Numbered from the stretch's first letter, positions 10,838-58,335 are shown. The stretch: DNA of 64,000 nucleotides from Verrucomicrobiota bacterium (GCA_022709905.1 JAKLHY010000024.1:1-64000); one strand, 5' to 3'. Translations and numbers: made by a program. The notes: a model not told the origin generated them from the letters alone.

Positions 10838-10886
10838 AAATTGGTTGCGGGGACAGGATTTGAACCTGTGACCTTCAGGTTATGAG
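10838..10886. other. attL: 49-bp copy of the 3' half of tRNA-fMet
   Basis: These 49 bases are identical to 58287-58335, which covers the 3' half of the initiator tRNA gene up to the anticodon loop. Beyond ATGAG the match ends, so this is a displaced 3' piece and not a tRNA gene. Together with the integrase gene 130 bp away it marks the left end of an integrated element. Confidence 0.92.
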
Positions 10887-10929
10887 TCTAAAGCTGCATG
10901 ATTGATCTCCAGTCAGTTATACGGCTTTT

Positions 10930-11011
10930 ATGCAATTTATTTGGCAATTATTTGGAAACGCCCCTAAAGTCTTTCACAGTATTGCACAGTCTTTCAAAGC
11001 GTTGCACAAAC
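10930..11011. other. Arm-type integrase-binding repeats, left end
   Basis: TTATTTGGCAATTATTTGG is followed by AGTATTGCACAG and AAGCGTTGCAC. Versions of all three occur at the right end of the island (58152-58216: ATATTTGGCAA, AATTTGGCAA, AGCGTTGCAG, AGTATTGCACAG). Short repeats inside both ends of an element are typical arm sites for tyrosine integrases. Confidence 0.6.
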
Positions 11012-11018
11012 TGAACAT

Positions 11019-12608
11019 ATGTCTCTGGAAATCCGAAAATCGAGTAAATGGTGGTACGGGGTGTTCATGGTTAACGGCCAACGCACCGTCATCAATCTGG
11101 GCGTTCCCATCACGGGTCGGCGTCCCCCCAAACGAACCATGCTGGGGGATGATGAATTTGAACGTTCCCGGGGCCGGGCCATGCAGGCCTACGCCAAGCA
11201 GCGCAAGAAAATGGATGAAGACCGAACCGGTGAGAAGGCCCTCACCAAACTGGCCGAGATGAAGACAGGGCGGGAGGTTTCCTTCCCCATGCTGATCGAC
11301 CTGCCTCAACACTGGGAAGCGATTCCACGACGCAAGACCCCGGATGGACGCTATGCCCACCAGTGCAAAACCACGTTGGAACGGTTCGCCGCGTTCGTGG
11401 TCGAGCGTCAGCGGGGGGCCGATGAGTTTGTGTCGGTGAAACCGGAGACGGCCAGGGCTTTCATGGCCGCTGAAGAGGCCCGAGGGGTGTCCCCCAAGAC
11501 CTGGAACGACACACTAAAGCTCTTGAGAGCTACCTTCCGGCATCTGCATCCGCACCTCAATGACGGGAGCAATCCATTTCATGGCTTGGTGACCAAGGCG
11601 ACCGAGACGGTCAATCGGGAGCCATTCACGGTCGAGGAACTCAAGGCGATTACCGAGGCCTGTGCCGGGGATGACTTCATCCGGCCGATTATTGTGACCG
11701 GCATGTGCACGGCCATGCGTCGGGGCGACTGCTGCATGCTGAAATGGGACGATGTGGATCTGAAGGCTGGATTCATCACGGTGAAAACGGCCAAGACAGG
11801 GGAAACGGTCGATATCCCGGTGTTCCCGATGTTGAGGGATGAACTACAGCGGGCGTTGGCATCAACCGGGGGCAAGGGATGCTGTTTTCCGGAACAGGCC
11901 CAGATGTATACCACCAATCCCGACGGGATTACCTGGCGGGTGAAGCAGGTTCTGGCCAAGGCGCTGAAATCGCCGACAGGCCCGAACACGCCTGAACCGT
12001 CTGTGTCCACCGATGAAGTGCGGACCAAAGGACTGGCCTACATTAAAGGCCTGGGCGAGACGTCGAAGGCTGAGAACATGCGAGTGGTGTTCACGGCATA
12101 CGTGGACGGGCAGAACCTCAAGGAAGTGATGGCCGGGACTTGTTGTAGCCGAGGGACGGTGTCAAATTACCTGAATGAACTCGAGCGTGACACTGGTTTT
12201 CCCATTCTGCGCGGGAAACAGCGGGCATTGAAGACCGACGGATTACAGACGGAGCGGGAAAACGGGAAACGTCGGGCGTCGGTTCATGATTTCCATAGTT
12301 TTCGGGTGACTTGGATCACGCTGGCCTTGGCGGCGGGTGTGCCGTTGGAACTGGTCCAAAGGGTGACTGGCCATCGAACGGTTGCGGTCGTGATGAAGCA
12401 CTACTTCCGTCCGGGGCGGGAAGACTTCCGGCAGGCACTGAATGCTGCGATGCCGCAATTCTTGGTGAACGGACATAAGAAATCAGAAACCAAGGGCGAG
12501 GTGGTATTGTCGCCAAAGGACGAGATCCGAAGGATCGTCGAACATGTCACGCCCCGAACATGGAAGAAGGATAAAGCGCGAATTCTTCAATTGCTTGAAA
12601 TTGTATAA
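11019..12608 (+). CDS. int: Tyrosine integrase of the tRNA-fMet island
   Basis: A 529-aa tyrosine recombinase. The first catalytic Arg is in TAMRRGDCCMLKWDDV (about residue 230); box II is HDFHSFRVTWITLALAAG, then VTGHRTVAVVMKHYF with the nucleophile Tyr near residue 461. Between the two boxes is an insertion of roughly 100 residues holding an HTH-like stretch, EVMAGTCCSRGTVSNYLNEL, which is unusual for the family. The gene starts 133 bp inside attL and points into the island, as expected for the enzyme that inserted it. Length exceeds the usual 350-450 aa because of the insertion. Confidence 0.93.
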   Translation: MSLEIRKSSKWWYGVFMVNGQRTVINLGVPITGRRPPKRTMLGDDEFERSRGRAMQAYAKQRKKMDEDRTGEKALTKLAEMKTGREVSFPMLIDLPQHWEAIPRRKTPDGRYAHQCKTTLERFAAFVVERQRGADEFVSVKPETARAFMAAEEARGVSPKTWNDTLKLLRATFRHLHPHLNDGSNPFHGLVTKATETVNREPFTVEELKAITEACAGDDFIRPIIVTGMCTAMRRGDCCMLKWDDVDLKAGFITVKTAKTGETVDIPVFPMLRDELQRALASTGGKGCCFPEQAQMYTTNPDGITWRVKQVLAKALKSPTGPNTPEPSVSTDEVRTKGLAYIKGLGETSKAENMRVVFTAYVDGQNLKEVMAGTCCSRGTVSNYLNELERDTGFPILRGKQRALKTDGLQTERENGKRRASVHDFHSFRVTWITLALAAGVPLELVQRVTGHRTVAVVMKHYFRPGREDFRQALNAAMPQFLVNGHKKSETKGEVVLSPKDEIRRIVEHVTPRTWKKDKARILQLLEIV

Positions 12609-12692
12609 CAACGGCGTGGTGAGTGGTAAAAGAGGGAAGTGGTCAGACGATTATCAGCGCGCCCTTGTTGCTGATCGCATTGAGAACCTCAC

Positions 12693-13115
12693 ATGAGCAA
12701 TTCGGTGCCATATCAATTTCTCGCCGATCTGGTGTTGATCGTGCACTTCGCCATCGTTGTGTTCATCATTGGCGGCCTGGTCTTCATTGGGGTCGGCGGT
12801 TGGCGAGGCTGGCGGCTGGCGCGATTGCTTTGGTTTCGTGTTATGCACCTGGTGGCCATCGCTGTGGTTGTCGCTCAAGTTTGGCTTGGGAAACTGTGCG
12901 CGCTCACAACGCTGGAAATGGGGCTCCGTACCAAGGCTCATGAAACGACATACACAGGAAGCTTTATCGAGTATTGGCTGGATCGCTTGCTGTTTTTCGA
13001 GGCGCCCACCTGGGTTTTCACTCTCGCCTACTCGGCCTTCGGGTTGGCGGTCCTGGCCGCCTGGTGGGTCTTTCCACCTCGATCAAGGTCTCGTGCGCAA
13101 TCAGGCGATGCTTAA
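12693..13115 (+). CDS. DUF2784-family membrane protein
   Basis: A 140-aa protein with four hydrophobic segments, beginning YQFLADLVLIVHFAIVVFII and containing WWRG-like and GSFIEYWLDRLLF segments characteristic of DUF2784. The function of this family is unknown. It stands alone, 84 bp after the integrase, and is probably island cargo. Confidence 0.8.
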   Translation: MSNSVPYQFLADLVLIVHFAIVVFIIGGLVFIGVGGWRGWRLARLLWFRVMHLVAIAVVVAQVWLGKLCALTTLEMGLRTKAHETTYTGSFIEYWLDRLLFFEAPTWVFTLAYSAFGLAVLAAWWVFPPRSRSRAQSGDA

Positions 13116-13144
13116 GCCTTCCCTGCCTTGTCAAAATCCCGGCA

Positions 13145-57603: not shown

Positions 57604-57652
57604 TCTCCGGAAAAAGCTCGAAAACGGCCGCGTAACCTGCTGGTATTTCAGT
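57604..57652 (+). promoter_or_regulatory. Leader of the type I-E array
   Basis: Only 49 bp lie between the cas2e stop and the first repeat. That is short for an I-E leader. Part of the leader may lie inside cas2e. Confidence 0.55.
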
Positions 57653-58047
57653 GTTCTCCCCACCCGCGTGGGGATGGTCCGAAGAGGTAACGTTCATCGA
57701 CGTAACCGCCTTCGTTCTCCCCACCCGCGTGGGGATGGTCCGGAAAAAGACAGAAACAAAACAAAGCAAGAAGCGTTCTCCCCACCCGCGTGGGGATGGT
57801 CCGAGCTGTGCCTCGGTGATTCCTGCCTTCACGCAGTTCTCCCCACCCGCGTGGGGATGGTCCGCGGGCTCAGGAACCGGGTTTGGGCATCCGTGCGTTC
57901 TCCCCACCCGCGTGGGGATGGTCCGCTCTTAAGGCAATCCAAGCGGCGGCATACGCGGTTCTCCCCACCCGCGTGGGGATGGTCCGGAACACGCCGAATC
58001 GTTTTTCAACCACTACGAGTTCTCCCCACCCGCGTGGGGATGGCTTT
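57653..58047 (+). CRISPR. Type I-E CRISPR array, 7 repeats and 6 spacers
   Basis: 29-bp repeats beginning GTTCTCCCCACCCGC and ending GGGGATGGTCCG start at 57653, 57714, 57775, 57836, 57897, 57958 and 58019. All six spacers are exactly 32 nt. The repeat is typical of I-E (CCCCACCCGCGTGGGG stem). The last repeat is degenerate after GGGGATGG, which marks the trailer end; the array reads on the plus strand with cas genes upstream. Spacer 6 (from 57987) reads as protein-like sequence EHAESFFNHY. No spacer match was seen by eye in this window. Confidence 0.98.
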
Positions 58048-58151
58048 ATTCGGATTTATGGCCATTTTAGAACTTAAGACTAGGCGTCATCAAAATGGTG
58101 TAGCTCCTTGCCGATCCCAAAACAATGCCAACTTGCCAGGTTTGAAAGGCC

Positions 58152-58218
58152 AAATATTTGGCAAAAATTTGGCAATCGATCACAGCGTTGCAGAGTATTG
58201 CAGAGTATTGCACAGGGA
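58152..58218. other. Arm-type repeats, right end of the island
   Basis: ATATTTGGCAA and AATTTGGCAA are followed by AGCGTTGCAG, AGTATTGCAG and AGTATTGCACAG. They match the set at 10930-11011 near attL. They lie between the CRISPR array and the tRNA gene. Confidence 0.6.
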
Positions 58219-58260
58219 GGGAGTCGGGCGGTGTCGAGATCGTAACCCGTTAATAAAAAA

Positions 58261-58282
58261 GGGCTTTCCTGATGGAAAACCC
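58261..58282 (-). terminator. Island-supplied terminator for tRNA-fMet
   Basis: On the minus strand GGGTTTTCC and GGAAAGCCC (one G-T pair) form a stem with a 4-nt loop, followed by TTTTTTATT. It lies where the original terminator (now at 10811-10836) should be. The island thus brings a replacement. Confidence 0.75.
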
Positions 58283-58286
58283 TGGA

Positions 58287-58335
58287 AAATTGGTTGCGGG
58301 GACAGGATTTGAACCTGTGACCTTCAGGTTATGAG
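58287..58335. other. attR within tRNA-fMet
   Basis: Forty-nine bases identical to 10838-10886. They span the 3' part of the tRNA gene up to the anticodon loop plus a few bases after it. The crossover must lie in this block. Confidence 0.92.

What the first reader, a model, noticed from the sequence alone, without database searches (positions are those of the whole stretch)
10838..58335. 47.5-kb genomic island in tRNA-fMet that carries a complete type I-E CRISPR-Cas system
A 49-bp block covering the 3' half of an initiator tRNA gene is present twice: whole tRNA at right, 3' half alone at left. A tyrosine integrase gene is directly inside the left copy. The I-E cas operon and array lie against the right end, so the whole CRISPR-Cas system seems to have arrived by site-specific integration, 1.8 kb from a resident I-C system.
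Basis: partly seen in the sequence, partly recalled or inferred. Interest (0 to 1): 0.85.

Follow-up and report, generated by a model that had tools for sequence, protein, structure and literature searches.

The report
Prophage-derived tRNA island carrying CRISPR immunity
A 47.5-kb block of DNA inserted into a start-codon tRNA gene of an uncultured bacterium (Verrucomicrobiota) is the altered remains of a virus that lost its particle genes and now carries a complete type I-E CRISPR immune system, a well-formed case of a known kind of event.

Summary
A perfect 49-bp repeat of the 3' half of an initiator tRNA bounds 47.45 kb, with a tyrosine integrase gene 130 bp inside the left copy and a complete I-E system against the right end. 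The integrase belongs to a family found in 33 of 293 genomes of the same order (Limisphaerales-type Verrucomicrobiota), often with a truncated tRNA-fMet just upstream. At least seven related elements of 47.0-49.4 kb encode terminase, portal, capsid and tail genes, so the family is temperate phages. The window's element keeps the phage left arm (integrase, excisionase-like regulator, ParB-like protein, methylases, terminase) and matching arm-type sites beside both ends, absent from shuffled sequence. No portal, capsid or tail gene was found; 34 kb of other DNA, including I-E, lies there instead. It is therefore a prophage-derived composite island. I-E is clearly inside it, but whether it arrived with the element or was inserted later cannot be decided: of 22 I-E-bearing genomes in the order, only this one has I-E inside such an element. 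CRISPR-Cas on tRNA-inserted islands and in prophages is already published (Vibrio), so this is a new member of a known kind, in a phage family I found no description of.

The parts
10811..10837 (-). hairpin plus T-run downstream of the left tRNA half: most likely the original tRNA-fMet terminator
   Evidence: Intact tRNA-fMet genes of many relatives are followed by ATTT + GC hairpin + T-run at the same distance, e.g. L014, L213, L214, L222; no arm-type site lies outside this end
10838..10886 (-). left att copy: 3' half of tRNA-fMet (49 bp, identical to 58287-58335)
10940..10989 (+). left arm-type sites: TTTGGCAATTATTTGG (10940-10955) and GTATTGCACAG (10979-10989)
   Evidence: the first motif is at about the same distance in the related phage elements
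11019..12608 (+). tyrosine integrase, 529 aa
   Evidence: Pfam PF00589, PHROG integrase 9e-35; 65-77% identical to integrases beside truncated tRNA-fMet in other genomes
16203..16637 (+). excisionase-like / regulatory HTH protein
   Evidence: phrog_66 excisionase and transcriptional regulator 9e-8; homologs in related elements
16634..19145 (+). two phage-module proteins of unknown function (16634-17521, 17469-19145)
   Evidence: homologs in related elements; phrog_29234 for the second
19353..19865 (+). ParB-like nuclease/partition protein
   Evidence: phrog_620 7e-26; homologs in G139, G017, G207 elements
19914..22128 (+). C5 cytosine DNA methylase (19914-21458) and a second methyltransferase (21442-22128)
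   Evidence: PF00145 6e-58, PF13649; 72-75% identical to the genes in related elements
22076..24014 (+). terminase small (22076-22657) and large (22641-24014) subunits
   Evidence: phrog_6299 1e-22, phrog_979 7e-172; Terminase_6N/6C
24114..47159 (.). non-phage cargo and debris: FGE-sulfatase-like, Xer-like recombinase 25389-26414, thioesterase-like 26793-30338, IS481-like transposase + AAA ATPase 37339-39430, C25 peptidase 41296-42717, DruA-like 43659-44534, IS66 44408-46255; truncated copies of a phage gene at 34940-35191 and 40947-41204
46611..47075 (+). phage-family gene Q (154 aa) that lies just upstream of the large terminase in related prophages
   Evidence: phrog_19443 minor head protein, weak
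48116..49012 (+). Mrr-type restriction endonuclease
   Evidence: PF04471 4e-29
49077..57603 (+). type I-E cas operon: cas3 49077-51752, cas8e 51685-53196, cse2 53189-53734, cas6e 53617-54405, cas7e 54444-55622, cas5e 55612-56382, cas1 56279-57277, cas2 57304-57603
   Evidence: same order in relatives
57653..58043 (+). I-E CRISPR array, 7 repeats GTTCTCCCCACCCGCGTGGGGATGGTCCG, last one truncated, 6 spacers of 32 nt
58150..58215 (+). right arm-type sites: TTTGCCAAATATTTGG (- strand, 58150-58165), TTTGGCAAAAATTTGG (58157-58172), GTATTGCAGAG and GTATTGCACAG (58195-58215)
58287..58335 (-). right att copy, inside the complete tRNA-fMet gene (58291-58367)

Best explanation
The 47.45-kb block is a composite island derived from a temperate phage that integrates into tRNA-fMet. 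Its tyrosine integrase recombined a phage attP with the anticodon-to-3'-end half of the host tRNA-fMet gene. The host's own 3' half and terminator were left at the left end, and a phage-supplied 3' half plus new terminator restored the tRNA at the right end (inferred from the anatomy). The element lost, or never had, its head and tail genes; between terminase and right att it now holds about 34 kb of accreted DNA, ending with a complete type I-E CRISPR-Cas system against the right att copy. Because the integrase, an excisionase-like gene, both att copies and both arm regions are present and open, the integrase could in principle still excise the whole block, I-E included (inferred, not shown). 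I-E works as an ordinary adaptive immune system of the bacterium (inferred from the complete gene set and array).
For: Perfect 49-bp att repeat and adjacent integrase. The integrase family is found in 33 of 293 genomes of the order; a truncated tRNA-fMet lies close upstream in 18 of the 30 fetched loci. Elements with the same integrase and phage gene sets have similar size and position: G139 47.7 kb, IMG/VR contig 48.1, G017a 47.1, G181 49.4 and 47.0, G231 49.2 and about 48.9. PHROGs names terminase, portal, major head and tape-measure proteins in G139. The window's 11-24 kb matches that phage left arm. The arm motif TTTGGCAANNATTTGG occurs exactly twice in 64 kb, once inside each att copy; 100 shuffles gave none. 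A looser form of the motif lies near the left end of all eight phage-type elements and near the right end of six of them. It was absent within 400 bp downstream of tRNA-fMet in relatives without such an element there. The 49-bp block, including bases that vary within the order, matches the tRNA of two other genomes of the same family, G002 and G004, and of G135 from another family.
Against: No same-genus genome without the island was available, so the empty site is inferred from the terminator pattern of relatives. 24-47 kb contains pieces that resemble a second island (recombinase 25389-26414 plus genes A and Q, as in G231C148x), so the block may be a fusion of two elements rather than one. 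The large terminase is of a different type from that of the related phages. No experimental sign of excision.
Confidence: 0.82

Rival explanations
1. I-E was inserted into an already resident, decaying prophage after integration, so it did not arrive by site-specific integration of this element. (Compatible with the best explanation's anatomy; differs in the history.)
For: No other I-E locus among 22 I-E genomes of the order was found inside a tRNA-fMet element. The prophage has lost its structural genes and gained several transposases. The I-E type, cas order and repeat are shared across the order, so a local source is plausible.
Against: No separate boundary (repeat, integrase or transposase) was found that brackets I-E alone. 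The array ends about 110 bp from the arm-type sites.
Confidence: 0.45
2. Two tandem elements at tRNA-fMet fused by deletion: a prophage (10.8 to about 24 kb) and a non-phage island (about 25 to 58 kb) that carried I-E.
For: Tandem elements exist at this site: G017 has three truncated copies plus the full tRNA. The 25-47 kb part shares recombinase 25389-26414 and genes A and Q with the 28.5-kb G231C148x island.
Against: No residual tRNA fragment was found at 24-25 kb. The arm sites at the two ends match each other, as for one element.
Confidence: 0.3
3. I-E is native chromosome beside tRNA-fMet and the left tRNA fragment is an unrelated scar of a smaller prophage.
For: In G139 an I-E locus lies on the same contig, about 40 kb outside the left att copy of its prophage.
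Against: Arm-type sites matching the left end lie between the array and the tRNA. In the other genomes where both could be placed, tRNA-fMet and I-E are on different contigs or, in one complete genome, far apart.
Confidence: 0.06

Closest known systems
Vibrio cholerae genomic island GI-24 with type I-E (PMC6360697)
   Same: integrase-bounded island carrying a complete I-E system; same variant cas order cas3-cas8e-cse2-cas6-cas7-cas5-cas1-cas2; excision of GI-24 shown there by PCR
   Different: inserted at another site (between VC0289 and VC0290) and in a different phylum; here the carrier keeps a phage left arm and sits in tRNA-fMet
Vibrio III-B/I-F hybrid system inside a prophage, and I-F / II-B islands at tRNA-Met (PMC6360697)
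   Same: CRISPR-Cas inside a prophage or at a tRNA-Met insertion
   Different: other CRISPR types, other hosts; here the prophage has lost its structural genes
Defence-gene hotspots of P2-like phages and P4-like satellites (PMC9122126)
   Same: anti-phage systems carried as cargo of phage-related elements
   Different: those are variable hotspots in phages and satellites; here a 34-kb replacement includes CRISPR-Cas (comparison from the abstract and my own knowledge)
tRNA-fMet prophages of the same order (G139 = DIXK01000067.1; IMGVR_UViG_3300050333_000099)
   Same: integrase 75-79% identical, same att site, same arm motif, about the same size
   Different: they carry a GpA-like terminase, portal, capsid, tape-measure and tail genes, and no CRISPR-Cas between the att copies was found

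Membership tests
tRNA-targeting integrative element with tyrosine integrase | direct repeat made of the tRNA 3' end, one copy in an intact tRNA | tested here: met
tRNA-targeting integrative element with tyrosine integrase | integrase gene at one end with conserved catalytic residues | tested here: met
   R234, R429, H452, Y462 invariant in the 15-sequence alignment; their catalytic role is assigned from knowledge of the family
tRNA-targeting integrative element with tyrosine integrase | matching arm-type sites inside both ends | tested here: met
   relatives (binding itself not tested)
tRNA-targeting integrative element with tyrosine integrase | excision to a circle and empty site | not testable with these tools
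   needs PCR or reads; no same-genus genome among the relatives
complete temperate phage (intact prophage) | portal, capsid and tail genes between the att copies | tested here: not met
   no match of the G139 portal, capsid, tape-measure or tail proteins in the window element; none seen in Pfam or PHROGs scans of the main ORFs
type I-E CRISPR-Cas | cas3, cas8e, cse2, cas7, cas5, cas6e, cas1, cas2 all present | tested here: met
type I-E CRISPR-Cas | array of 28-29-nt repeats with 32-nt spacers | tested here: met
integrative conjugative element | relaxase and conjugation genes | tested here: inconclusive
   none among the main ORFs scanned with Pfam, but not every small ORF was scanned
phage satellite (PICI-like) | small terminase kept without structural genes, and packaging by a helper phage | tested here: inconclusive
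   small and large terminase genes are both present; dependence on a helper cannot be tested

The most novel reading that the evidence does not exclude
The tRNA-fMet integrase family forms a system of full-length phages plus phage-sized cargo islands packaged by them as helper-dependent satellites. The window island (47.4 kb, I-E CRISPR) and G017b (46.5 kb, metal resistance, an intact small-terminase ORF, no structural genes found) match the 47-50-kb phage size because they travel in the same capsids. A complete I-E immune system would then be spread by the capsids of phages of the same family.
Probability: 0.08. Interest if true: 0.75.

Novelty: new member of a known kind. Interest (0 to 1): 0.4.

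Why it matters
It gives an anatomically clean case, outside the well-studied Proteobacteria, of a whole CRISPR-Cas system sitting inside a phage-derived element with intact-looking integration machinery. It also brings to light a family of tRNA-fMet phages of Limisphaerales for which I found no publication and no close integrase in the phage records searched. The same integration site serves viruses, a metal-resistance island and an immune-system island, so the site can be used to follow how cargo replaces viral genes.

Tried and rejected
I tested whether the I-C system is cargo of a further tandem island. The second integrase contig C310 does not start with I-C repeats, the left flank has no arm-type sites, and the only other I-C repeats are on C71, a 3-kb contig of array alone with no end overlap to the window; not supported, not excluded. 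Five of the six I-E spacers (24-nt cores) gave no exact match in IMG/VR; the sixth (spacer 2, low complexity) was not scanned. No I-E or I-C spacer had a match longer than 17 nt in the loci then held, outside the arrays. Composition does not separate the I-E region clearly from the flanks. The comparison of genes A and Q did not give functions.

Full report
Observation. The repeat, the tRNA, the integrase, the I-E operon, the array and the distance to the I-C system are all as described. The repeat is 49 bp identical, 10838-10886 and 58287-58335. The genome (8.17 Mb, 347 contigs, 98.4% complete, 5.3% contamination) has only three matches to the tRNA: the full gene, the left copy, and one truncated copy on contig C310.

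Host. The related integrase loci with names come mostly from Verrucomicrobiota, including 'subdivision 3', Pedosphaerales and Limisphaerales records. The relatives used are of the same order; none is of the same genus.

Integrase and site. The 529-aa integrase has homologs at E below 1e-20 in 33 of 293 genomes of the order, the window's genome included. In 18 of the 30 loci fetched, a truncated tRNA-fMet 3' half lies close upstream. Across these loci the shared block mostly starts at the anticodon loop (CTCATAACC...). The T-stem bases differ between genomes, while the bases 5' of the anticodon loop differ between elements. This is what integration by crossover inside the tRNA half predicts. 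Intact tRNA-fMet genes of many relatives are followed, a few bases after CCA, by a hairpin and T-run. The left copy in the window has exactly such a terminator, so it is most likely the original 3' end, and the complete tRNA at the right has a terminator supplied by the element (inference).

What the element is. I measured the same-integrase elements from one truncated copy to the next copy: 47.7 kb in G139, 48.1 kb in an IMG/VR contig, 47.1 kb in G017a, 49.4 and 47.0 kb in G181, 49.2 kb and about 48.9 kb in G231, 49.8 kb in G209. The proteins of G139 include terminase, portal, major head and tape-measure proteins by PHROGs. Their homologs are present in most of the others, with the capsid protein 89-93% identical; G209 has only part of the set. 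The family is thus temperate phages. The window's first 13 kb matches their left arm: integrase, excisionase-like HTH, ParB-like protein, C5 methylase, second methyltransferase and a terminase pair, though the large terminase is of another type. No portal, capsid, tape-measure or tail homolog was found in the rest.

Both ends belong together. TTTGGCAANNATTTGG occurs exactly twice in the window, at 10940 and 58157, each just inside an att copy; shuffles gave none. GTATTGCACAG variants accompany it at both ends. The related phages carry a form of the motif at about the same left position, and most of them at the right end too. None of the 29 relatives' loci examined by pattern had the motif in the 400 bp downstream of tRNA-fMet (one locus was cut short by the contig end). 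The I-E array therefore lies inside the right end of the element, about 110 bp from its arm sites.

The middle, 24-47 kb, holds an Xer-like recombinase, transposases of IS481 and IS66 type, a C25 peptidase, a DruA-like gene, a FGE-type protein and truncated duplicates of a phage gene. The recombinase and genes A and Q recur in a 28.5-kb island of G231, so a fusion of two tandem elements is a live alternative. Tandem elements do occur at this tRNA: G017 carries a prophage and a 46.5-kb element with metal-efflux-type genes head to tail (the metal-efflux reading is from the protein sequences, not from a family search).

The I-E system. All eight cas genes are present in the order cas3-cas8e-cse2-cas6e-cas7e-cas5e-cas1-cas2. 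The same order occurs in the full-length relatives compared, with Cas1 80-87% identical in them and the same 29-nt repeat or a one-base variant; several of their arrays hold 34 to at least 180 repeats, against 7 here. So the I-E type is at home in the order. A second I-E locus on contig C323 of the same genome lacks cse2 and cas6e and has a broken cas1, so the island may supply a working copy; C323 could however be a contaminant. I-E occurs in 22 of 293 genomes and I-C in 32 of 293. Only here was I-E found inside a tRNA-fMet element; in G139 it is about 40 kb outside.

Known background. CRISPR-Cas on excisable or tRNA-inserted islands and in prophages is described for Vibrio, including I-E on GI-24 with the same cas order (PMC6360697). 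Phages and satellites as carriers of defence genes are described too (PMC9122126). No paper in the searched library names Limisphaerales together with prophages, and no phage record has an integrase closer than about 31% over part of its length.

Verdict. A real, well-bounded, prophage-derived composite island carrying a complete I-E system; a new member of a known kind. Shown: att repeat, integrase family, phage left arm, matched arm motifs, full I-E set. Inferred: crossover point, direction, ability to excise, and function of I-E. Undecided: whether I-E came with the element.

Noticed in passing
G000:C310:36865-36913 and 35177-36661 (L016, L055, L056): A second truncated tRNA-fMet with a 51-56% identical integrase in the same assembly; its T-stem bases differ from the genome's own tRNA-fMet, so the contig may be a contaminant or an imported element.
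   Followed up: partly
L201 (G000:C323) 580-6900: A wrecked I-E locus (cse2 and cas6e missing, cas1 broken) with one copy of exactly the repeat of the island's array.
   Followed up: partly
G017:C3:115990-162539 (L060-L063): A 46.5-kb element with the same integrase type, proteins that read as RND and P-type-ATPase metal efflux and a multicopper oxidase, an intact small-terminase ORF and no phage structural genes found, in tandem with a prophage; its own matching repeats (TTTACGGTWCCTTTGTTCCACAA) lie near both ends.
   Followed up: partly
window 34940-35191, 40947-41204, 46611-47075: Genes A and Q: a pair of unknown proteins beside the terminase in the related phages, kept in the non-phage elements too, with cargo inserted between them in some.
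   Followed up: partly
L057 (G000:C71), window 1-270: A 3-kb contig made only of the I-C repeats (43 repeats), so the I-C array is probably far longer than the four repeats seen in the window.
   Followed up: partly
L199 (G139:C62 1-20000): An I-E locus with at least 180 repeats, about 40 kb outside a tRNA-fMet prophage.
   Followed up: no
window 60189-60314: A short tandem repeat coding, in one frame, for an acidic stretch rich in D, E and P.
   Followed up: no
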